64,000 bases of DNA. It comes from Streptomyces spirodelae. GTDB lineage: Bacteria > Actinomycetota > Actinomycetes > Streptomycetales > Streptomycetaceae. The translations under genes were made by a program, and so were the position numbers. The notes under the pieces are model-generated. The model searched no databases, was not told where the DNA came from, and saw only the letters and a list, made by a program, of their open reading frames with translations. The stretch lies in contig NZ_JAFFZN010000013.1 in assembly GCF_017676385.1 (NCBI RefSeq), positions 1-64,000 on the forward strand. Reading direction: 5' to 3'. Positions 5,305 to 17,072 of this stretch are shown piece after piece; positions within the stretch are counted from its first letter, which is position 1; every line of letters starts with the position of its first letter.

Positions 5305-8300
5305 TCAGCCCAGGTACGGCTCGTAGTCCCAGTACGGGCGGGTGCGCTGGCGGGCCGCCAGGGTGTGATGGTGCTGGGCGCCCAGCGAGCGGGTGAACCG
5401 CTCCAGGGCCTCGCTCTCCAGCTCGCGGGCCTCTTCCCGGCGCCGCAGCGAGCGCAGGTCACCGGCGTTGGCCACCATGCACGAGAGCGTGAGGGGATGG
5501 TCCCCGCCCAGCACCTGCCGGGACCGCTCCAGAGTGTCGCGGCTCAGTTCGTACGCGTCCTCCAGCGCCTCGCTGAAGTTGCGGCCGCCGCTGGTGTTGA
5601 GGGCGCAGCCGAGCGTGGCGGGGTGGTCGGCGCCCAGCAGCGTGGTGAGCCCGGCCAGCGCCTGCTCGAACATGTTCAGCGCCCCGTCGCGGTCGCCCGA
5701 CGCCTGGAGCACCAGGCCCGCGTTGGACTGCATCGCGGTGGGGACCGGGTGCGCCGGGCCCAGCAGGGCGCGGAAGGCGTTCTCCGCCTCGATCAGCAGT
5801 TCGCTGGCGAGTGCGAGGTCGCCGTTCTCGCGCAGGAAGTTGCCGTAGTCGGTCAGCAGGGACAGCGTGGAGTAGTGGGTGCGGCTGTGCACCTGCTCGT
5901 GCTGTTCCAGCAGGACGGCCATGGCGGTCGCGATGTCCTGGCGCGGGGTTCCCGCTCTGCGCTGGCAGAGCAGCAGGTTGTGCCGTGCCATGAGGGTCTG
6001 CGGATGCTGGGCGCCGAGCACCTGGAGATGCAGCCGCATGCCCAGCTCCTGCCGGGCCAGCGCCTCCTGGTAGCGGCCCATCAGCCGCAGGTCGCGGGCA
6101 CAGGCGTTGCCGGAGGCGAGGGTGTGCGGGTGACGGGCGCGCAGCACCTGCTCCCGTTTGCGGAGGGTGTCCAGATCCGCTTCGTAGGCGTCCTCGTAAC
6201 GGCCCAGTAGCCGCAGGCCGACGGCGAGATTGTGCTGCGCCAGCAAGCTCGTCCACTCCTCCGGGCCGTACAGCCGACGGGAGACCTCGACGACCTGCTC
6301 CTGCAGATGCAGCGCCTCGTCGTACTGGCCCAGCAACCGAAGGTCGGAGGCGAGGCAGCTGGTGGCGTCCATGATGGCTTCCTCGTGGGCGCCGTCGGCT
6401 TGCGGCATCTCACGCAGCCGTTCGAGGCGGGCGCTGTCGAGGGCCTGGGCCTCCCGGAAGCGGCCGCCTTCGCGCAGCAGATTGCCCTGGAGGGTGGTGA
6501 GGGCCAGCATCTGGTCGGCAGCGGCGTCCAGGAACGTCTCCCAGTCGGCGCGGATGCTCTCGGCCAGCTCGGCGCCGAGGGAGTACTCGCCGCTGGAGTA
6601 GCTGTAGCGCAGGCAGTTGAGCAGCATCTCCTGGACACGCCGCTCCTTGCTGGAGGGGGCGGCCGAGGCCAGCAGGTGGGGCAGCATCTCGGCGTACCGG
6701 CCCCAGTGGCGGCTGTCGTTGGGCGTGCTCGGGTCGGCCTCGACCAGCAGCCGGTGCACGGTCTCGCGGTAGACGTCGTTCTGCCGCCCCTGGGTCAGCT
6801 CGCTGATGACGCTGTGGACCACCTGGTGCATATGCACGGAGTCGTTCTGTTCGACGTCGCCGACCGCGGAGGTGCGGGCCTCGCGGGTGAGCACCGAGTA
6901 GTTGACCAGGGAGTCCAGAGCGCGGGACCAGCCGGAGCGGTCGGTGCTGAGCCAGCGCAGATTGTCCGGGAGTTCAGCCGACGGGATGCCCCGGGCGAGG
7001 CCCAGTGGGATGCGGCCGGGCGCGAAGACCGAGCACAGGGAGAGCAGTTCGACCGCGCGCGGCTCGGACTTGCGCAGCTTGTTCAGCAGCATCGACCAGG
7101 AGGTCAGGGACGAGTACGGGTAGTCGTCCGGCATGGTGTTGGTCTCCAGCCGGGTGAGCCCCACGCCGCGCACCATGCGCAGGTACTCGGGGACCTCCAT
7201 GCCCTCCTCGCCCAGCCAGGCCGCTGCCTGTGCCAGCTGGAGCGGCAGGTCCTGGAACTCGCTCGCCACCTGGTCGGCCTGCTCGACGGTGATGTGCGGG
7301 GCGCGGCGCATCAGATAGCCGGTGGACTCGGCGCGGCGGAAGGCGCTGATCTGCTTGATGTCGGTGAGGGACCGCCAGCTCTTGTTGCGCGAGGTGATCA
7401 GGACGTGGCCGCTGCCGCCCTGCGGGAGGTAGGCGGCGGCGTCCTCGGGCTCCTCCCAGCCGTCGAAGATCAGCAGCCACCGTCCGGAGGGCTCGTTCCT
7501 GCGCAGCGCCTCGCGTACGGCACGTACCCGCTCACCGACCTCGCCGGAGCTGTCGAGGCCGATCTCGGCGGCCAGCGACCCGAAGGTGTCACGCTGGGTG
7601 TTGCGCTGGTCGCAGTTGACCCACCAGACGACGTCGTAGTCGGGTGCGAACCGGTGTGCGTACTCGGCCACGATCTGCGTCTTGCCGATGCCCGCCGTAC
7701 CCACGAGCGTGCAGACGGCGGCACCGTGCTCGGCGTCCATCAGCCGCTGCTGGAGGTCGCCGAGGATGAGGTCGCGGCCCGTGAAGCGCGCGTTGCGGCG
7801 CGGCACCTCGCCCCACACGGCGGGCGGGTCGTTGGGGTAGCGGCTGGCGTAGCCCGGCTGCGGTACGGGCATCCGGCGGGGGCGCAGCCCCAGGCGGTTG
7901 AGCAGGCGCCGCTCGGCCTCCTCCTCACCGACGCCCCACAGGTTGACCGGCTCCAGTACGGCGGTGGCCGGCAGCAGTTCGCGGTTGGTGAGGTTGACGG
8001 CGGCGAACCGGTCGACGTGGTCGGCGACATAGCCGCGCAGCACCGCGTTCCAGTCGGCCTCGGTGCGCGGTCCGAGCTGGAGGAACAGGTCGCTGATCAC
8101 CAGCAGGACCCGCCCGGAGGCCAGCAGCAGATCGCCGAGCGCCTCCTCCAGCGGCTGCTCGCGGTCCGGGTCCCACCGCTGGAGGGTGGTGCGATGCCCA
8201 TGGCTCTCCAGCCGGTGTGCGATCCAGTTTCCCCACCCCCGGTGGTAGCCGGGAAAAACCACCACGAAGTGCTCGGACTCCCCTCCGGGCGCAGTGCCCT

Positions 8301-8325
8301 GAGCCGGTTCCCGCTGAGCGACCAT
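5305..8325 (-). CDS. TIR-like / NB-ARC / TPR protein (FxSxx-COOH system TPR protein type)
   Basis: This 1006-aa multidomain protein resembles the proteins annotated as FxSxx-COOH system tetratricopeptide repeat protein. Residues about 17-130 form a TIR-like alpha/beta domain (EHFVVVFPGYHRGWGNWIA and VLLVISDLFL). A STAND-type NB-ARC ATPase follows, with Walker A GTAGIGKT at 209-216 and Walker B LLIFDGW at 284-290. The C-terminal half (about 560-1000) is a long array of Kinesin-light-chain-like TPRs (LLGQYDEALHLQEQ, LMGRYQEALARQE). STAND proteins are signal-sensing switches that oligomerise. The TPRs probably sense the ligand and the TIR-like part may be an adaptor or effector. It is the last gene of the minus-strand locus, 60 nt after the hydroxylase gene. 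Its target is unknown, and I cannot tell whether the TIR-like domain is catalytic. Confidence 0.85.
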   Translation of the reverse strand: MVAQREPAQGTAPGGESEHFVVVFPGYHRGWGNWIAHRLESHGHRTTLQRWDPDREQPLEEALGDLLLASGRVLLVISDLFLQLGPRTEADWNAVLRGYVADHVDRFAAVNLTNRELLPATAVLEPVNLWGVGEEEAERRLLNRLGLRPRRMPVPQPGYASRYPNDPPAVWGEVPRRNARFTGRDLILGDLQQRLMDAEHGAAVCTLVGTAGIGKTQIVAEYAHRFAPDYDVVWWVNCDQRNTQRDTFGSLAAEIGLDSSGEVGERVRAVREALRRNEPSGRWLLIFDGWEEPEDAAAYLPQGGSGHVLITSRNKSWRSLTDIKQISAFRRAESTGYLMRRAPHITVEQADQVASEFQDLPLQLAQAAAWLGEEGMEVPEYLRMVRGVGLTRLETNTMPDDYPYSSLTSWSMLLNKLRKSEPRAVELLSLCSVFAPGRIPLGLARGIPSAELPDNLRWLSTDRSGWSRALDSLVNYSVLTREARTSAVGDVEQNDSVHMHQVVHSVISELTQGRQNDVYRETVHRLLVEADPSTPNDSRHWGRYAEMLPHLLASAAPSSKERRVQEMLLNCLRYSYSSGEYSLGAELAESIRADWETFLDAAADQMLALTTLQGNLLREGGRFREAQALDSARLERLREMPQADGAHEEAIMDATSCLASDLRLLGQYDEALHLQEQVVEVSRRLYGPEEWTSLLAQHNLAVGLRLLGRYEDAYEADLDTLRKREQVLRARHPHTLASGNACARDLRLMGRYQEALARQELGMRLHLQVLGAQHPQTLMARHNLLLCQRRAGTPRQDIATAMAVLLEQHEQVHSRTHYSTLSLLTDYGNFLRENGDLALASELLIEAENAFRALLGPAHPVPTAMQSNAGLVLQASGDRDGALNMFEQALAGLTTLLGADHPATLGCALNTSGGRNFSEALEDAYELSRDTLERSRQVLGGDHPLTLSCMVANAGDLRSLRRREEARELESEALERFTRSLGAQHHHTLAARQRTRPYWDYEPYLG

Positions 8326-8385: not shown

Positions 8386-9747
8386 TTACCCAAAGTGACC
8401 GTTTGTGAGCCTGTCGGCTGCGCTTTCTGTGTTCCCGCGGGCGCCGCCGGCCCGCACGCCCGGGGAGCGCAGCCGCTCGTAGCGGTGGCGCATGCCCTCC
8501 ACGAACTCTGTGCCCTGACGGGTGAGTTGGCCAGAGCCCAGAAGGAGGAAAAGAGCGTGGTCGACCTGGGCGCCGTAGTCGGCGGCGTGGGCACGCGCGG
8601 CGGCACGTTCGGCGGATGTGGCCGAGGCCCGGCGGGCCAGCCTGCCCCACAGGTCGGCGAGGGCCAGATGCGCGTACGTGCCCTGCACCACGGCGCCCAG
8701 CGGCCTGGGATCGCTGCGCCAGCCCACCCGGTAGACGGCCTCGGCCGACTCCTCGTTGAGCCGTACGACACCGCCCAGCACGGCGAGCTTGCTGTGCTGC
8801 ACCTCGTGGACGAGGACCTCGGCCATCTCCTGGGGCGTCTGCGGAAGCGTCGTCAGCACCGCCCAGGGGGCGGCCAGCCGGGTCGCGCTGGCGCGCCCGT
8901 CGGGCTTCCAAAGGACGGGTACGACGGTACGGACCAGCGTCGCCACCTCGGTGGCCCGCTCCGGATCCGCCTCGCGCAGCAGGTCCAGCCCCCGCGCCCA
9001 CAGCTCCCGCCACTCGTACGCCTCGTCAGGGGCCGTGACGGAGGCGGGCAGCAGTCCGGCCAGTCCGGCGCGGCCCGTCTCGCTCGCCAGGTGCGGGTCC
9101 TGGTCGTCGAGGACTGCGGGCGCCCCGGGCAGCGGCGTCAGCGGGCGCCAGCGCGGCTGCGGGCCGCCCTGTGGCGCGTCGGTGCCGAGGCCGCGCTGCG
9201 GCACGGTCCGGTGGCCGAGTAAGTCCTCACGGGGAACGGACAGCGGGCGTCCGTCCTCGGGGGTGAGGGTGACGGTGTTCTCCGTCGCCGCTATCCGCAC
9301 CCGCGGCGCCGAAGCCGCATACGAGCCCAGGCCGGGGAGGATGAGGCGGCCTTCCGTCGCAGGCAGCACGAGCCGGAAGTCGCATCCGGCGGCGAGGGCG
9401 ACCGTCGCGGCCAGCGTGCCCAGGCCCGACAGCGCGGTGACGAACTCCTCATCGGGCGGGGCGGCGAGCGCGTGTGCCAGCCAGTTCCCGGCGGCCGGGC
9501 AGCCCAGGGCGGCACGTGCCGCGACGGGATCGTGGTGCTCGGCGTCCTCCAGGAGCGCCCAGTGCTCCCGCAGGGCTCGGGCCGCAGGCCCGGGGAGCCG
9601 GGCACGCTCGGCCCGGGTCAGCAGGGTCTTGAGCAGCACCAGGCGTCTGCTGTGCAACCAGCCGTCCAGTAAGTCGGCTTCGCCCGGCAGCGGTCGTGTC
9701 TCCCCCATCCGGCGTAGCTGAGGGGGCGGAATCTCAAAGGGGTTCAT
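8386..9747 (-). CDS. aKG-HExxH-type peptide beta-hydroxylase
   Basis: This 453-aa protein matches the HExxH family linked to FxSxx-COOH-type RiPP loci, which is thought to beta-hydroxylate a ribosomal peptide with iron and 2-oxoglutarate. The metal-binding HEVQH motif is at residues 314-318, in the context EVLVHEVQHSKLAVL. A conserved acidic stretch (NEESAEAVYRVGWRSDPRPLGAVVQG) follows and may supply the third ligand. The ATG start overlaps the end of the upstream small gene by 14 nt, which suggests translational coupling and supports that gene's product as the substrate. Codons 26 and 176 are TTA, the rare bldA-dependent leucine codon in Streptomyces. The family is usually found beside a radical SAM enzyme, but none is present here. 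Confidence 0.8.
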   Translation of the reverse strand: MNPFEIPPPQLRRMGETRPLPGEADLLDGWLHSRRLVLLKTLLTRAERARLPGPAARALREHWALLEDAEHHDPVAARAALGCPAAGNWLAHALAAPPDEEFVTALSGLGTLAATVALAAGCDFRLVLPATEGRLILPGLGSYAASAPRVRIAATENTVTLTPEDGRPLSVPREDLLGHRTVPQRGLGTDAPQGGPQPRWRPLTPLPGAPAVLDDQDPHLASETGRAGLAGLLPASVTAPDEAYEWRELWARGLDLLREADPERATEVATLVRTVVPVLWKPDGRASATRLAAPWAVLTTLPQTPQEMAEVLVHEVQHSKLAVLGGVVRLNEESAEAVYRVGWRSDPRPLGAVVQGTYAHLALADLWGRLARRASATSAERAAARAHAADYGAQVDHALFLLLGSGQLTRQGTEFVEGMRHRYERLRSPGVRAGGARGNTESAADRLTNGHFG

Positions 9748-10096
9748 GGCGGCCCACGCTGTCTCCCGGTCCCACAGGCGGGCCGGAGGTGCCGTGGACC
9801 GAGCCGAAGGTTGACCGGATCACGCCCCGTTTTCCAGCTGTCCGGGCGCTGTTCTGCTGCGCGTCACCCGTGTGCCCGGGCCGCGCGCGCCCGCCCTGTG
9901 TGCCGGAGGACCGCCACACCCGCGAGAGTTCCTCGGGAGCACGCAGCGCGCTCTCCACGGCGGCGGTTACGGCGGGATCGTCGCAGGTCCTCAGAGCGCG
10001 CAGGGTCAGACCCGAGAGATCGGGCAAGGGCGACGACGGTGCGGCGCCGGGCCCACGGCCCGGACTGCGGGACGCGCCCTCGGTCCGCTTCGGCAC
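9734..10096 (-). CDS. Candidate ribosomal peptide precursor (FxsA-like), 120 aa
   Basis: This small GTG-start gene has a very good ribosome binding site (GGGAGGAG, 7-8 nt upstream) and overlaps the hydroxylase start by 14 nt. The central segment LPDLSGLTLRAL at residues 24-35, followed by CDDPAVTAAVESAL, looks like the leader region of FxSxx-COOH precursor peptides. The expected C-terminal Phe-x-Ser-x-x end is absent. Instead there are a WRSSG at 61-65, where the core would normally end the protein, and an internal FGSVH at 97-101, with a basic Gly/Arg/Ser-rich tail to residue 120. It may be an atypical precursor, a read-through of a once shorter one, or a partner protein of the hydroxylase. 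The longer upstream frame (to 10234) lacks a binding site. Confidence 0.6.
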   Translation of the reverse strand: MPKRTEGASRSPGRGPGAAPSSPLPDLSGLTLRALRTCDDPAVTAAVESALRAPEELSRVWRSSGTQGGRARPGHTGDAQQNSARTAGKRGVIRSTFGSVHGTSGPPVGPGDSVGRHEPL

Positions 10097-10285
10097 GCTC
10101 TTCTCCTCCCTAGGAACCCGCCCGGGGGCAGTTGCACGGATGCTGTCTCTTTCCCGGGGCAGGAAACCGGAAACACTTGCGAGGCGCGGTGCCACCGCAT
10201 TCGGCCGGTCCTCGTCTTTCCCCGCACACCACATCAGGGCACCCCCCGTTCCCCCTCGCTGCCTCCCCCCGTAACCCCTACCCGC

Positions 10286-13200
10286 TCAGGACAGTTCGGC
10301 CACCCGGTCCCTGGTGTCGCGTACCTCTTCCCAGGGGATGTCCGCCAGATGACCGGCCAGCAACCGCCATTCGGCCTCCGCCGCGCGGTAGTCGGCCAGC
10401 GCCTCCTCGGTGCGCCCTTGGGAGCGGTGGAAACCGGCCCGTGCGTGCAGCGCCCTGGCCGCGGTGAGGGAGCCGCGCTCCCGCTCCTGGGCCAGCTCCT
10501 CCAGTGCTCTGCTGAACTCTGCCGCCGCCTGCTGGGACTCCGGAGCGGCCGCCGGGAAGAGCGCCCGGGCCCTGCCCAGGCGCAGCCACGCCTGCGCCCT
10601 GCTGTCCGCGTCGGGGCCCTGACGGGCCGCCTGCTCCAGCAGATGGCATCCCTCGTACAGGTCGGGCAGGAAGTTCTCGCGTTCGTAGCGGAGCAGCAGC
10701 GCACGGCCGAGCAGCAGCGCCGCCCTGGCCACGGTGGAGCTGCCGGACGGTGCCCGGGTGAGCGCCTCGCGCAGCAGTCCCTCGGCGCGCGAGAGGTCGC
10801 CCGCCTCGCCGAGCAGCATCTCGCCCCATTCGATGAGCAGTTCGCCGCGCTGGGCGCTGTCGCGTTCGGTCAGCCCCTCGGCCTCCCGGTACGCCTCGGC
10901 CGCCGCCTCCCAGTCGCGGGTCTCGCGCAGTACGCGGGCGCGCTCCCTGGCACTGCGCAGCCGCAGCCCGGACCGCTCCCCGGCCAGCGCGCCGGCCTGT
11001 GCCAGCACCTCGAGGCGCTCCTGCGGCGGGGCGCCGCTCAGCCGCAGCGCGGCCGCCAGGTCCAGCAGAGCGCCACAGCGCTGTGCGCCGGTCTCGTCAC
11101 GGCTGCCGGCTTCCCGGCCGCCGGCATCGGCTGTCTGCCGGGCCACCGGTACGGCCTGGGTCTCGGAGGTCGCGGAGGCGCTGGAGGGCTCTGGGGACCC
11201 GGGCGCGCGGTCTGCCAGCATGTCGCTCGCTTCGCGGAGTTCGCCGACGGCCTCGAGGGCCGCCCGGTGACGGTGTTCGGGTGCGGTCTGGGCCAGGGCG
11301 AGCAGCACCCGGCCCAGCCGGAGTTTACGGGTGCGCTCGGCGTCCGAGGGCAGTGACGGGTCGGCCGTGTCCTGCGGTGCACCCGTGCGGCCCGCCAGCG
11401 AGCGCAGCAGTCCTTCGGCGCGCAGCAGGTGCCGGGTGCCGCCGCTGATCTGCCAGAGCGAATGTTCCACTCCCGCGCGCTCCAGCAGGGTCCCGGGCAC
11501 GCTGTCGGTCAGCAGTTCGGCGGCGTCCCGCAGCAGCGGCTCGGGGCCCTGCGGGCTGCGCCGTACGGCGGCCGTGCCGGCCAGTGCGTGCAGGACCCGG
11601 CCGAGGGCGAGCCGGGCGCGTGCGCTGTCGCGGTCGGCGGCGCGTGCGGCCTCGCCCACCGAGCGGGCGCGGTGCAGCAGTTGGATGTCGCCCTGGGCAC
11701 GCCACTGCCGCAGCAGCCGCTCGGTCTCGGCCACCTGGTCGGCCGCGGTCTGCTCGGGCAGATAGAAGCGGACGACCTCGGCGGGGATGGTCGCGAACAT
11801 CTCGTCGCCGTCCTCGGCCTCGTCCGGCTCCGAGCCGCCCTCGACGGTGCCCGCGGGATCGCCTTCGGCGCGTTCCTGTTCGGCGCGGCCGGTCAGCTGG
11901 GCGACGGCCATGGCGGCGAAGTTGCGGGTGCCCTTGCCGAAGCGCTGCGCCACATACCCGGACAGGTGTTTGAGGATCAGCACTGCCGCGCCCTGGTCCA
12001 GGGACTGCAGCAGCAGGTCGCGGACGCCGGGAGCGAACGCGTAGCGCGGACCCGGCAGACTTCTGCGGCAACCGGTTCCCTCCGGCCCGTCGTCCTCCGG
12101 CAGCCGGGTCAGCAGCCCGGACAGCAGGACTTCCGCCAGCTCCATCGGCCCGGTGTCGGGCAGCATCGCTTCCTGCACCAGATGGATGACCGGCAGCAGC
12201 AGCGGCACCACGGCCAGGTGCACGGCCAGATCGAGGGCCCCGGGGGAGGCGCTGTTGCGGAACTCGCGCAGCAGGGTGCGGGCCGGTACGCCACCGGCCG
12301 GGGTGCGCGGTGCGGGCATCGCCGGGTGCCGGGGCAGGACCCAGGCGGCGGCGCCCGCGACCGCCCGCTCGCTGTCGGTGCCCAGCAGCCGCGCCCAGTT
12401 GCCCAGCGCCTCCGGTGTGGGCAGCAGCACGGGAACCGGCACGGCCTCCGCGGGCGGGGGCGGGCCGTAGCTGTCGGGCTCGAAGGTGACGCGCCCGCCG
12501 AGCCCGCGCTCGCGCAGTAACCGCCCGGGTTCGGCCGGCAGCGCCGTACGCGGCCACAGCCGGGGCGGCAGCGGCTGGACGACGGCCAGCGGCGAACGGC
12601 CCGACCAGTGGTGCAGCAGCCGCTGGGCGCGGCCGTCCTGCCACAGGGCACCCACGCAGTCGCTGACCACGAGGGTGAGGCGGCGGCCCGTGGTGTCGCG
12701 GTACTCGTCGGCGGGGCGCAGCCGCGCTGTGCCGTCGGCCGGCCCTGTGCCGATGAGCGGGGCTCCGTCCCTGGCGCGGTGCAGATAGCGCACCTGGACG
12801 TCGCGGAAGGCGCCGAGCTGTTCGAAGGTCTGCCGCAGCCGCTCCAGGGTGGGCTGCCATACGGAAGCGGTGGGCGAGGCGTCCATGATGAGCTGGATCT
12901 CGCTGTAGCGGCGGACCTCGGTGCCGAAGACCGGCCGCACGGCCGTGGAGCGGGCGCTCAGGTCCGCGGTGGCGTCCTCGTCCAGCGCGCCCTTGGCGGG
13001 CGGCAGCGGCGGCCGGTAGCCGTGCAACGGGCGCAGCGCGTGCTGGAGTTCGAGCAGTCCGGACAGCGCTCCCGCCGCGGGCGCACGGACCGGGAAGCCG
13101 GCCGGCGGGGCGCCGCCGTGCCGGCGCGGCGCGAACAGCGAGACGGGAGCCGTGCGCTCCGGTCCCGGGGGCGTCTCCTCCGGCTCGTCGGCGGCGTGGT

Positions 13201-13487: not shown

Positions 13488-14552
13488 TCACCTCGGGCGG
13501 TCGAGGGGGCGTAGCAGCATCTCGGCCAGCCGGTCGCGGGTGACCCGCTCGACGCCCGAGGCGCGCTGTGTCAGGAACAGGGCGTTGAGCAGCTGGTCGG
13601 TGGCGATGACCTGCCCCGGCTGGCGCCGCAGGAATCGCTGGACCAGTTCGGCGCCCTCCTCCAGCGCCTCTTCCCCCAGGTGTGCGGAGACCATCGCGGC
13701 GAGCTGTTCGTCGCCGGGCGGTTTGAGGTCGAGCTGGATGCAGCGGCGCAGCAGCGCGGCCGGGAAGTCGCGCTCCCCGTTGGAGGTGAGCACGATGAAC
13801 GGGAAGACCGTACAGCGCACCCGGCCGCCCTCGATGCGCACCTTCTCGCCGTCGGCCGTCAGCACCTCGGTGACCGGCTCGCGGTCGGCGATGCGCTCCA
13901 GCTCGGGGATGACGAACTCGCCGTCCTCCAGGACGTTCAACAGGTCGCTGGGCAGGTCTATGTCGCTCTTGTCCAGCTCGTCGACGAGCAGCACCCGGGG
14001 CAGCGGGGTGCCCTCCGGCTCGGCCGGCCGGGCCGGCAGCAGCGCCGTGCCGAGCGGACCGAGGCGCAGATACGAGCCGATCGGCGGGCGGGCGCGCGGC
14101 GCGCTGCTGTCCCCGGCGACGGCACGGTCCAGCTGGACGTCCTGGAGGCGGCCGATGGCGTCGTAGTGGTAGAGCCCGTCCTGCAGCGTCGTCCGGCTGA
14201 CGACTGGCCAGCGCAGCACCCGGCCCAGGCCCAGCTCGTGTGCGACGGCGTGCGCGAGGGTGGACTTGCCGGTGCCAGGGTTGCCGGTCACCAGGAGCGG
14301 GCGGCGCAGATACAGTGCCGCGTTGACCGCCTCGACCTCTTCGGGCCGCGGATGGAGGCTCTCCACCAAGCGGCGCCTGGCGCCCAGCCTCCGGGCGGTG
14401 TCGGCGCCCTCCGGGTCGTCGCCGTGCGCCCCCGCCGGGGAGTCGGGGCCGGTGCCCGCGCCGGTGAAGTCGCGCCAGGGTGGCGGCTCGGGCAGCCCGC
14501 GCACACCCTCGTGCGGGACGCCCGCACCGCGGTAGATGCGCCAATCGCTCAC
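13488..14552 (-). CDS. MoxR-family AAA+ ATPase
   Basis: This 354-aa AAA+ protein has Walker A GNPGTGKST at residues 90-98 and Walker B LLVDEL at 188-193. The following sequence (DKSDIDLPSDLLNVLEDGEF) is characteristic of MoxR ATPases, as is the sensor segment LTSNGERDFP. The GTG start overlaps the stop of the upstream protease gene as GTGA, and the vWA gene follows 7 nt after its stop, so the three are almost certainly co-translated. MoxR ATPases remodel or activate vWA partner proteins, and here that partner is the SAV_2336-type protein. Residues 1-60 form a Pro/Gly-rich N-terminal extension. Confidence 0.92.
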   Translation of the reverse strand: MSDWRIYRGAGVPHEGVRGLPEPPPWRDFTGAGTGPDSPAGAHGDDPEGADTARRLGARRRLVESLHPRPEEVEAVNAALYLRRPLLVTGNPGTGKSTLAHAVAHELGLGRVLRWPVVSRTTLQDGLYHYDAIGRLQDVQLDRAVAGDSSAPRARPPIGSYLRLGPLGTALLPARPAEPEGTPLPRVLLVDELDKSDIDLPSDLLNVLEDGEFVIPELERIADREPVTEVLTADGEKVRIEGGRVRCTVFPFIVLTSNGERDFPAALLRRCIQLDLKPPGDEQLAAMVSAHLGEEALEEGAELVQRFLRRQPGQVIATDQLLNALFLTQRASGVERVTRDRLAEMLLRPLDRPR

Positions 14553-16894
14553 GGTGTGCTCCTCAACGCTGTCGGCGGCCTGGGCATGAGCGGTGGTTCG
14601 CGCAACGGTCCGTCCCCCGAGGTCCTGTGGGGCGGATCGTAGAGCAGGACGATATGCCGTGCCCAGGCCGACGAGGGATCAATTGGCCTGCTGTTGACGT
14701 CACTTGCGCCATCCGAGTCGTCGGACAGGTCGGCGTTCCTGTTGCGCAGGGCTCTGATGTGCCAGGGCAGCTGCCGTGCCGAGTGTGTCTCGCGCAGCAG
14801 CTCGGCGGCCCGCTCGTGGAACTCCGCGCAGTCGTCGTGGTCGTGGCCGTCGCTGTAGGAGTGCCGCCACAGTGCCATGGCGTGTCCGGCACCGAGCGCC
14901 GCCGCCATGGCGCGGGCCCCCGAGCCGCTGCCGGTCCGTGCACAGTACACCGGCACGGCGCCGGGCGGCGCCGCCATCAGCCGTCCGTAGGCGGCCTGGC
15001 CGCCCTCCGGCACCGGTGCGTCGTGGCCTGAGCCCGGCACCTCCCTGCGCAGCGGGACGGCCTCCATGGGGCCGTCCAGCACAGCGGCGGCGCGGCTGCG
15101 GCACTCGGGGGTGAAGCCATGGTCCTTGCGGGATCTGTCCCGTACGACCACGAGCCTGCGCTGGCCCAGCGGCAGGGTGTGCGGGTTGAACGGGTCGGAG
15201 GGGTCGTAGGGCCTGGCACGCCAGGCGTCCACCGGCTCGTCGAACAGCGGGCGTGGCAGTACGAACTCCACGGCCGCCAGGTGGTCGTCCACATCGCACT
15301 GGTCCAGGGCCTGGGACAGCGCGCCGCGCACGGCCTCCTCCAGCCGGGAGCGCGGTGCGTCCTCGCGGCTCTGCTCGACGGTGATCTCCTCCCGCTCGCC
15401 GTCCTCGGCGGCAGGGTCGGTCCCGGGTTCGGCTATCCCGCCGACGGTCGCGGGGTCACCGGTGTGGAACTCGTCCTTCTCGGCCGGGCGCACCAGCGCG
15501 ACTCGCCAGGCGTGCCGTCCGGAGCCGTAGATGTCCGGTTCTATCTCCACCAGCACATCCGCGCGTGCGGCCGAGGCGGGGCGGTGGCCGTCCAGCACTC
15601 CGGGGACGCGGGCCCGGATGACGTCGTTGAGCAGCGTCCGGGCCGTGCGCTCCACCCACTCGCGCAGGTCGGCCAGCGCCCGGGCGGCGCGCGGCGTACG
15701 CGTCCTACCCGATCGGGTCAGCGCGGCCGTCACCTTGGCGGCGTACAGCACCACCGCCTCCAGGGCCAGATCCCCGGACGGCTCCTCGTCGGCCGTGCTG
15801 TTGTCCCGGGGGTCGTAGAGCAGCCCGGCGCCCTCCCGCCAGGAGCGGGGATCGTGGTCGCGCAGCGTGTAGGGCCAGCGCAGCACCATGTTGCGTGCCT
15901 CGTTGGCCAGTTGCAGCACCTGGCCGGCGCCGGTGGGCGGGTCGACCTCGGCGAACAGCGCGTACAGCTCGGCGCGGCGGTCCACCGTGAAGCCGTACGC
16001 GGGCTCGCCGCCCGAGGGCCCCAGGCGGGCGTGCTGCCGGTACCAGCTGTGGCCCCAGAACCCGCTGTAGCGCCTCAGGTGGTGTCTGTCGTGCGCGGAG
16101 AGCACCTCGTGCAGGAGGCGGGCGCCGCGCGGCCCCGCGTCGCACAGCTTGCGGAGCGCGGTGACGGGGGTGGCCAGCCCGGAGCCCGGTCTGCGGCCCG
16201 CGCCCTTGCTGACGCCGAGCACGGTGCCGCGGCGCTGGTCGAGCACGGGCCCGCCGGAGCAGCCCTCGGTCAGCTGGTCGCCGCTGAGCATGAGCGGGCG
16301 GCCGACGACTCCGGTCGCCTTGCCCAGCCCGGTGAAGAACATCTGCTCGCCCTTGACCTCGCTCGGCGCCCAGCCGTACAGCCCGATGTCCGCCGGAGTC
16401 AGTACCGAACGGTCGCTCAGCCACAGGCAGTCGGCGTCCTCGGCGCCCGGCACCCGTACCAGCGCCAGGTCCGGGAACGGCCAGGGGGCCGGGGGCGCCT
16501 GGGGGTCCTCGGGCAGCGGCAGCCCGAACGCGAGCTCACCGAGGAGGACGGTGCCGGCGGCGCCCTCGGCACCGACTACCTCGTCCGAGCTGCCCAGGTC
16601 ACCCGCGCCCACGCCACCGGCCGCGACGGCTGTGCCCGCGGTGTCCCCGATCGTGATGCCGATGGCGCGCTCCCCCCTCCACACGGGCGCGGCACCCTTG
16701 CCGACGACATGGGCGCACGTGAGGACCCATCCGGGCGCGACGAAGAAACCGCTCCCCCAGAACGCTCGCCGGTTCCTGTCGCTGCGACGGCTGTCGCCGC
16801 TTGGCCCGCTGCTTGCGTCGTACCCCTCGGGCGGTGCCCCGATGCGCACGACGGATGCGCGAACGGAGTCGGCGAGGTTCGCGGGGGCGTTCAT
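14549..16894 (-). CDS. Trypsin-like serine protease fused to VMAP-type C-terminal region
   Basis: This protein of about 781 aa begins with a trypsin-like domain (residues about 8-265) with an apparently complete catalytic triad: His62 in TCAHVV, Asp142 in PDLALVRV and Ser213 in EGCSGGPV. No signal peptide is visible, so it probably acts in the cytoplasm. The middle segment (HLRRYSGFWGHSW, then LQLANEARNMVLRWP) and the C-terminal segment (VEIEPDIYG to RHIVLLYDPP) resemble the VMAP-M and VMAP-C regions of vWA-MoxR-associated proteins. Such proteins are proposed to act as thresholded proteolytic triggers in anti-invader systems. An ATG at 16894 was chosen over a GTG at 16912; neither has a strong binding site. 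The stop overlaps the moxR start. Confidence 0.8.
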   Translation of the reverse strand: MNAPANLADSVRASVVRIGAPPEGYDASSGPSGDSRRSDRNRRAFWGSGFFVAPGWVLTCAHVVGKGAAPVWRGERAIGITIGDTAGTAVAAGGVGAGDLGSSDEVVGAEGAAGTVLLGELAFGLPLPEDPQAPPAPWPFPDLALVRVPGAEDADCLWLSDRSVLTPADIGLYGWAPSEVKGEQMFFTGLGKATGVVGRPLMLSGDQLTEGCSGGPVLDQRRGTVLGVSKGAGRRPGSGLATPVTALRKLCDAGPRGARLLHEVLSAHDRHHLRRYSGFWGHSWYRQHARLGPSGGEPAYGFTVDRRAELYALFAEVDPPTGAGQVLQLANEARNMVLRWPYTLRDHDPRSWREGAGLLYDPRDNSTADEEPSGDLALEAVVLYAAKVTAALTRSGRTRTPRAARALADLREWVERTARTLLNDVIRARVPGVLDGHRPASAARADVLVEIEPDIYGSGRHAWRVALVRPAEKDEFHTGDPATVGGIAEPGTDPAAEDGEREEITVEQSREDAPRSRLEEAVRGALSQALDQCDVDDHLAAVEFVLPRPLFDEPVDAWRARPYDPSDPFNPHTLPLGQRRLVVVRDRSRKDHGFTPECRSRAAAVLDGPMEAVPLRREVPGSGHDAPVPEGGQAAYGRLMAAPPGAVPVYCARTGSGSGARAMAAALGAGHAMALWRHSYSDGHDHDDCAEFHERAAELLRETHSARQLPWHIRALRNRNADLSDDSDGASDVNSRPIDPSSAWARHIVLLYDPPHRTSGDGPLREPPLMPRPPTALRSTP

Positions 16895-17072
16895 GCGGCA
16901 CAGGGCGCGCACAGCAGCACGCCGAATCGTCGCCCCCCGCGTCGCGCGGCTCGCACTCCTTGCACAGCGCTCCCCCTCTACGCCCCGTTCCCCCGCGGCT
17001 CTCCTACGTGAGGTGTATGAGGTAGCAGGCTAGTCGCCGGGGGTGACAGACGGGAGGGGCGGGTCCCCGTGG

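What the first reader, a model, noticed from the sequence alone, without database searches (positions are those of the whole stretch)
9734..10096. Atypical 120-aa RiPP-like precursor without the C-terminal FxSxx end
The leader-like LPDLSGLTLRAL plus DDPAVTAAV segment and a 14-nt overlap with the hydroxylase gene suggest a substrate peptide. The usual C-terminal Phe-x-Ser-x-x is missing. A WRSSG sits where the core should end, and an FGSVH lies 20 residues before the true end. This may be a new core type, a processed precursor needing proteolysis (a protease is encoded in the same locus), or a decayed gene.
Basis: partly seen in the sequence, partly recalled or inferred. Interest (0 to 1): 0.75.

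Follow-up and report, generated by a model that had tools for sequence, protein, structure and literature searches.

The report
Radical-SAM-less FxSxx-type precursor peptide, "W-type"
A small Streptomyces gene appears to encode the substrate peptide of a defence-like gene system in which the usual cross-linking enzyme and its target residue are both absent, leaving a conserved tryptophan and an oxygenase as the likely modifying enzyme.

Summary
The ORF is real: minus strand, GTG 10096 to stop 9734, 120 aa, 14-nt overlap with an aKG-HExxH peptide hydroxylase gene, inside a complete Trypco1 / trypsin-VMAP / MoxR / SAV_2336 / TIR-NB-ARC-TPR system. It is a divergent FxsA homologue, not a decayed gene: pN/pS is 0.19 from LPDL to the Trp. 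Of 63 loci picked by HExxH similarity, 25 have an FxsB radical-SAM gene before HExxH and 38 do not (one of these is cut too short to tell); a second draw added 18 without. All 55 readable W-type precursors keep the Trp (54 at one fixed distance); 0 of 53 distinct ones keep the Phe two residues on, against 25 of 26 FxSxx-type. The HExxH proteins split on one branch (100/100). So the missing FxSxx end marks a coherent radical-SAM-less clade. FGSVH is not a core: its Phe is not conserved, and sister loci carry a nucleotide element there that is partly untranslated. Residues 66-120 look like translated spacer. Most likely HExxH oxidises the peptide near WRSSG without a prior cyclophane (inferred; no chemistry was tested). 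New variant of a known kind.

The parts
9734..10096 (-). W-type FxsA-like precursor peptide, 120 aa
9902..10027 (-). residues 24-65, leader LPDL...DDPAV...EELSRV plus WRSSG: the part under protein-level selection; Trp61 is the invariant residue
   Evidence: pN/pS 0.19 from LPDL to the Trp; W at position 38 from the L of LPDL in 54 of 55 rows, at 41 in one
9839..9901 (-). residues 66-86, linker, evolving near neutrally
   Evidence: variable columns 14/13/14 by codon position in 21 codons
9748..9836 (-). DNA-conserved 89 nt upstream of HExxH; holds the FGSVH codons (9794-9808) and the place of the TTTYCRGYC element of sister loci (diverged here)
   Evidence: between-clade DNA identity 0.83-0.86 against 0.59-0.67 in the two 30-nt blocks before it; no clear codon phase; L179 has the strict element there, read by eye
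8386..9747 (-). aKG-HExxH-type peptide hydroxylase, HEVQH intact
   Evidence: TIGR04267 145 bits; AF2 model matches SjiH 22ob and ChlH 8s5f; profile match
5305..8325 (-). FxsT: TIR - NB-ARC - TPR effector-like protein
   Evidence: NF040586 730 bits; PF13676, PF00931, PF13424
10286..13480 (-). SAV_2336-type protein (vWA-like by eye and position) with a weak C-terminal TPR-like part
   Evidence: NF041121 486 bits; TPR hits below cut-off and no vWA hit in Pfam
13488..14552 (-). MoxR-like AAA ATPase
   Evidence: PF07728 30.5 bits, cut-off 22
14549..16912 (-). trypsin-like protease fused to VMAP-C
   Evidence: PF13365 and PF20028
17073..17495 (-). Trypco1 protein
   Evidence: PF19493 62.6 bits

Best explanation
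The ORF encodes the precursor peptide of a variant of the FxSxx-type peptide-processing module of VMAP (trypsin-MoxR-vWA) conflict systems. In this variant the FxsB radical-SAM gene, which in FxSxx-type loci lies between precursor and HExxH gene, is absent, and so is the Phe that FxSxx-type precursors carry two residues after the conserved Trp. The leader (LPDL...DDP...) still docks the peptide on a partner common to both variants, most likely the aKG-HExxH enzyme, which then oxidises residues at or just after Trp61 (W-R-S-S-G here) without needing a cyclophane. The trimmed or modified peptide would act as a signal or ligand inside the TIR-NB-ARC-TPR / VMAP system. Residues 66-120 are not part of the product: they are spacer that became translated, running over a cis-element up to the HExxH start and possibly coupling its translation. 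SHOWN by sequence: homology, selection up to the Trp, Trp conservation, joint absence of FxsB and Phe, intact HExxH, the nucleotide element in sister loci. INFERRED: substrate role, site and type of modification, partner of the leader, signalling role, coupling, and that the window's own tail holds a diverged copy of the element.
For: Of 63 loci, 25 have FxsB directly before HExxH (precursor found upstream of it in 24) and 38 have none; in 37 of the 38 the precursor is the next gene upstream of HExxH, the last (L100) is cut 150 nt upstream and cannot be judged. Second draw: 18 further loci with no FxsB in the 1.5 kb upstream, all with the Trp. Trp at position 38 in 54 of 55 rows; Phe at +2 in 0 of 53 distinct rows against 25 of 26 FxSxx-type. 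One branch splits the classes, 100/100; W-type still a clade with 10 outgroup rows, 100/99. No FxsB over cut-off in the own genome; FxsB at E 1e-50 in 6 of the 36 genomes known here to hold a W-type locus against 178 of the 259 others (counted by hand). HExxH motif in 63 of 63. Gene order otherwise kept in W-type loci where the contig reaches. Fold match to SjiH and the ChlBH HExxH domain. HExxH enzymes act in clusters listed without a radical-SAM gene in other RiPPs (pfl in PMC12636437, pes in PMC13060819; passages).
Against: No peptide or modification has been observed. ChlBH activity depends on a pre-installed cyclophane (PMC12636437 introduction). The short core has no motif beyond the Trp and small or acidic residues, unusual for a defined RiPP core. 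The direction (loss of FxsB rather than gain) rests on a weakly supported root (78/89). A radical-SAM enzyme acting in trans is not excluded: two weak FxsB-like hits (38.4 and 31.5 bits) exist in the genome, and 6 of 36 W-type genomes hold an FxsB elsewhere. Post-Trp relaxation is not uniform: pN/pS 0.16-1.42 by group, several on few codons, one undefined.
Confidence: 0.66

Rival explanations
1. The peptide is not a substrate but a small adaptor or regulatory subunit: the conserved leader plus Trp binds HExxH, VMAP or FxsT, and the variable end has no chemistry.
For: Mainly leader plus Trp is constrained; C-terminal parts vary from 4 to 60 residues after the Trp and are relaxed in most groups tested.
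Against: The HExxH enzyme keeps its motif in 63 of 63 loci and I see no other candidate substrate in the window's locus (by eye); the FxSxx-type homologues are named RiPP precursors (TIGR04268).
Confidence: 0.2
2. The C-terminal tail with FGSVH is a genuine second or alternative core, a displaced FxS.
For: Tail residues 87-120 are highly conserved in the five closest rows; a codon-phase test does not separate tail from leader (p 0.15); 14 sister precursors carry F-[SP]-[AV] in their tails.
Against: L092/L093 read TSGPV and L179 SFSGPG there; with L179 the leader keeps 32-36 of 42 residues, the tail 9 of 33 (tail counted by eye, ungapped, against the window); the F[SP][AV] codons are the element TTTYCRGYC, which in 8 of 22 loci of the first set and 7 of 12 of the second lies after the precursor's stop.
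Confidence: 0.06
3. Decayed FxsA gene left after loss of FxsB.
For: Below the FxSxx-COOH cut-off (12.2 of 28 bits); no radical-SAM partner over cut-off.
Against: pN/pS 0.19 up to the Trp in the window's own group; 55 loci keep leader and Trp.
Confidence: 0.03
4. One of the known non-FxSxx precursor types of Kaur et al. 2020 (RxD or acidic), so nothing new.
For: The paper mentions a radical-SAM gene only for the FxSxx and FtsH types; I could not read its source data.
Against: In the RxD and acidic types the AP-ATPase is said to be fused to the vWA protein; here it is a separate TIR gene. L190, the one locus where I found a precursor ending in ARAD (RxD-like), lies outside the W clade. Some W-type ends are acidic, but the window's WRSSGTQGG is not.
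Confidence: 0.1

Closest known systems
FxSxx-COOH (FxsA, TIGR04268) with FxsB and HExxH in VMAP-ternary systems (Kaur et al. 2020, PMC7159879; passages and section 24 seen)
   Same: leader, distance to the Trp, neighbouring genes (VMAP/MoxR/SAV_2336, HExxH, separate TIR-NB-ARC-TPR)
   Different: no FxsB gene, no FxSxx end, C-terminal extension
ChlBH / ChlH (PDB 8s5f) and SjiH (PDB 22nu, 22ob)
   Same: HExxH aKG oxygenase fold and HExxH...KL...WRxDxRP residues
   Different: [quoted passage not shown] this enzyme stands alone
PflC/PosC (PMC12636437) and PesO (PMC13060819); passages seen
   Same: HExxH enzymes acting on RiPP precursors in clusters listed without a radical-SAM gene; PflC/PosC also cut the backbone
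   Different: other precursors and other partner enzymes; no VMAP genes in the gene lists I saw for pfl and pes
RxD-type peptide modules (PMC7159879 section 24; L190 here)
   Same: HExxH with a small precursor, no FxsB beside it in L190
   Different: RxD end, AP-ATPase said to be fused to vWA; other HExxH lineage

Membership tests
FxSxx-COOH precursor (TIGR04268) | score over the curated cut-off (28 bits) | tested here: not met
   12.2 bits; 15.7 in the genome scan
FxSxx-COOH precursor (TIGR04268) | C-terminal Phe-x-Ser-x-x | tested here: not met
   ends GRHEPL; no Phe at +2 from the Trp
FxSxx-COOH precursor (TIGR04268) | adjacent FxsB radical-SAM/SPASM gene | tested here: not met
   none in the 19-kb region, none over cut-off in the genome
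FxSxx-COOH precursor (TIGR04268) | leader homologous to FxsA | tested here: met
   sub-threshold match to profile positions 1-29; FxSxx-type precursors are hit by a profile of W-type rows, many at E 1e-5 to 1e-9, a few near 1e-3; leader-to-Trp spacing differs by one residue
VMAP-ternary conflict system with peptide-processing module | VMAP, MoxR and vWA proteins plus HExxH, precursor and AP-ATPase-TPR | tested here: met
   the vWA assignment of the SAV_2336 protein is by position and eye, Pfam shows no vWA hit
aKG-HExxH peptide hydroxylase (TIGR04267) | over cut-off, HExxH intact, fold of ChlH | tested here: met
   145 bits over 40; HEVQH; 22ob and 8s5f
RiPP precursor in general | post-translational modification of the peptide | not testable with these tools
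   needs mass spectrometry

The most novel reading that the evidence does not exclude
W-type modules are a further, radical-SAM-independent class of VMAP peptide systems in which the HExxH enzyme alone makes the active peptide, hydroxylating at or next to the invariant Trp and oxidatively cutting the backbone just after it (as PflC/PosC do elsewhere), which is why everything after W-x-S-x-G is free to be spacer; the cut, possibly amidated peptide is the ligand that arms the TIR-NB-ARC-TPR protein.
Probability: 0.2. Interest if true: 0.75.

Novelty: new variant of a known kind. Interest (0 to 1): 0.55.

Why it matters
It separates two enzymes that occur together in FxSxx-type loci: nature seems to have run the experiment of leaving out the radical-SAM step while keeping leader, HExxH and the rest of the immune-like system. 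That makes testable what the HExxH step alone does, what the leader binds, and whether the peptide, rather than its cross-link, is what the TIR-NB-ARC-TPR protein responds to. It also warns that conserved F-x-S-like strings near the ends of such ORFs can be DNA elements that happen to be translated.

Tried and rejected
FGSVH as a core: rejected. Decay: rejected. A frame-shifted FxSxx: none seen in the three frames of the last 120 nt before HExxH in the five closest rows (by eye); the linker was not read in other frames for this. A hidden upstream start of HExxH explaining the conserved tail: its frame has a stop inside the conserved stretch in three of five rows. Rfam element in 9500-10400: none at E <= 1. 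Codon-phase test of tail against leader in the five closest rows: not significant (Fisher p 0.15), so the nucleotide-element reading of the window's own tail leans on L179 and on sister loci; the window itself lacks the strict motif and the matrix hits of its group at that place are weak or not among the best three. RNA folding of the element was not tried. No metagenome or viral collection was scanned; genome contigs was scanned once.

Limits of my own counts: the 60 fetched loci are nearly all the best-scoring of the matches listed (153 of 295 genomes matched), so 38 to 25 is no estimate of frequency, and some of the 259 'other' genomes may hold W-type loci I did not look at. The profile used to find precursors was seeded from 11 rows that contain the Trp, and the trimming script preferred a leader with a Trp 33-46 residues on. 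The motif was defined after looking at the first set; the second set is the independent test. In FxsB loci the 200 nt before HExxH lie inside FxsB, so 0 of 25 there is no fair control; at the matching place before FxsB the motif is found in 2 of 25, so it is enriched in, not unique to, W-type loci. The loci are related, so Fisher and shuffle figures overstate independence. L100 and L173 (contig end or short flank) and L144, L171, L174 gave no precursor and are left out of the precursor counts. L152 equals L029 in the precursor.

Full report
WHAT IS THERE. The ORF lies on the minus strand, GTG 10096 to stop 9734, 120 residues, overlapping the next gene by 14 nt. An AGGGAGGAG stretch precedes the GTG and is kept in the four close relatives. 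Neighbours on the same strand, in order: Trypco1 (17495-17073), trypsin-VMAP-C (16912-14549), MoxR-like ATPase (14552-13488), SAV_2336-type protein (13480-10286), this ORF, aKG-HExxH hydroxylase (9747-8386), TIR-NB-ARC-TPR FxsT (8325-5305). The profile for FxSxx-COOH peptides matches only the leader, below cut-off (12.2 of 28 bits).

RELATIVES. HExxH matches in 153 of 295 genomes of the genus led to 60 fetched regions, nearly all the best-scoring matches; with the window and two named records (L028 Streptomyces smyrnaeus, L029 Streptomyces oryzae) 63 loci were compared. In 25 an FxsB gene sits directly before HExxH; in 38, including the window, tblastn with seven FxsB seeds finds none. One of the 38, L100, has only 150 nt upstream and cannot be judged; the others have at least 2.4 kb. 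The remaining gene order is the same in W-type loci wherever the contig reaches; in some FxsB loci the VMAP or MoxR hits are missing from the region. A second draw, from the order, gave 23 new loci: 18 without FxsB in 1.5 kb and with a W-type precursor, 4 with FxsB, 1 (L173) too short to tell. In that draw 1 of 8 genera, the window's own, had matches at E 1e-30.

PRECURSORS. 55 W-type rows (53 distinct) and 26 FxSxx-type rows were compared. In W-type rows the Trp is at position 38 from the first Leu of LPDL in 54 of 55 and at 41 in one; in FxSxx-type rows at 39 in 24 of 26, so WRSSG corresponds to the LWGF region. Phe two residues on: 25 of 26 FxSxx-type, 0 of 53 distinct W-type. FxSxx-type rows end 6 residues after the Trp in 22 of 26; W-type ends vary from 4 to 60 residues. 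After the Trp the commonest W-type residues are Tyr (19 of 53) at +1, Ser (18) and Glu (14) at +2, Gly (18), Asp (11) and Ser (9) at +3.

PHYLOGENY. HExxH proteins of the two classes fall on the two sides of one branch, support 100/100 (63 rows). With ten more distant HExxH proteins (and 13 W-type, 8 FxsB rows) the W-type remains one clade (100/99); its sister relation to the FxsB-VMAP clade is weak (78/89). Six of these ten have FxsB beside them; of the four without, one (L190) gave a precursor candidate, ending ARAD like the RxD type of Kaur et al.. Loss of FxsB in the W-type is therefore the likelier direction but not proven. FxsB at E 1e-50 is found in 6 of the 36 genomes known here to hold a W-type locus and in 178 of the 259 others (counted by hand; Fisher 2.6e-9, not corrected for kinship). 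The window's genome has none over cut-off.

SELECTION. In the window's group of five, pN/pS is 0.19 from LPDL to the Trp and 0.75 after it. By columns, residues 25-65 vary 8/3/20 by codon position, 66-86 14/13/14, 87-115 6/6/8. Leader against linker differs (p 0.017); leader against tail does not reach significance (p 0.15); the tail is far more conserved than the linker (p 3e-7). In the other eight groups the ratios up to the Trp are 0.29-0.59; after it 0.16-1.42, some on few codons, one undefined.

A NUCLEOTIDE ELEMENT IN THE TAIL. TTTYCRGYC, defined after looking, occurs within 200 nt upstream of HExxH in 22 of 37 W-type loci (dinucleotide shuffles: mean 0.12, at most 2); 30 copies exist on that strand in the 668 kb of W-type loci and 5 in the 453 kb of FxsB loci. 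It is in 0 of 25 FxsB loci within 200 nt of HExxH, but that stretch is inside FxsB; at the matching place before FxsB it is in 2 of 25. In 14 of the 22 it is inside the precursor frame and reads F[SP][AV]; in 8 it lies after the stop codon. In the second draw 12 of 18 have it within 250 nt (shuffles: mean 0.04, at most 1), 7 of them after the stop. The five loci of the window's group lack the strict form, and the matrix scores there are weak. Their relative L179 (67% DNA identity) has TTTCCGGCC where the window has the FGS codons, keeps 32-36 of 42 leader residues but 9 of 33 tail residues (tail counted by eye), and its precursor appears to stop before the HExxH start, so neither FGSVH nor the 14-nt overlap is kept. 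Residues 66-120 are therefore best read as translated spacer.

ENZYME. HExxH is present in 63 of 63 loci. The AlphaFold model of the window's enzyme (pLDDT 87.1, pTM 0.86) matches SjiH (22ob, E 3.4e-19, TM 0.76/0.84) and the ChlBH HExxH domain (8s5f, E 4.8e-9); the profile alignment carries the HExxH...KL and WRxDxRP residues.

LITERATURE. Kaur et al. 2020 (PMC7159879; passages and section 24 seen) describe the VMAP systems, four precursor types, and an additional radical-SAM gene when the peptide is FxSxx; they call the HExxH protein a peptidase. Later work shows aKG-dependent hydroxylation and, for PflC/PosC, oxidative backbone cleavage (PMC12636437: opening and passages; PMC13060819: passages). 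Searches for FxSxx, FxsA/FxsB, HExxH, SAV_2336 and ChlH listed no title on a radical-SAM-less, Trp-type precursor; I saw listings only, and most subscription papers are not held.

CONCLUSION. The mechanism (HExxH acting alone around Trp61; tail as spacer) is the best inference, about two in three.

Noticed in passing
window:10147-10176 (minus strand, upstream of the precursor): GTTTCCGG...CCGGGAAAG, an inverted repeat kept upstream of the precursor in the window group and L179, with similar strings in several sister loci; it shares the TTTCCGG core with the element before HExxH and may be a regulator site.
   Followed up: partly
L133, L141, L143, L147: FxsB-containing loci whose precursors have [LR]WDF or LWGGF and run beyond the usual six residues after the Trp (EAPKRQDW and others), possible intermediates.
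   Followed up: no
FxSxx-type rows among L125-L151, L170, L172: At the third place of the F-x-S-x-x end 16 of 26 rows have Asn and 4 Ser, so VMAP-linked ends are often FxNxx.
   Followed up: no
window:1320-5213 (+): 2-oxoglutarate dehydrogenase/decarboxylase (Kgd-type) gene lies tail to tail with FxsT, near an aKG-dependent oxygenase; probably chance.
   Followed up: no
L107 around -350 and -523 from HExxH: Two TTTCTGTTTC[CT]GG[CT]CGGTCGGGAAG copies about 170 nt apart upstream of the precursor region.
   Followed up: no
L190: HExxH gene without FxsB beside it and a small precursor candidate ending ARAD, apparently the RxD type.
   Followed up: partly
L126-L151, 250 nt before FxsB: 2 of 25 FxsB loci hold the TTTYCRGYC motif before FxsB, so the element may predate the split.
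   Followed up: no
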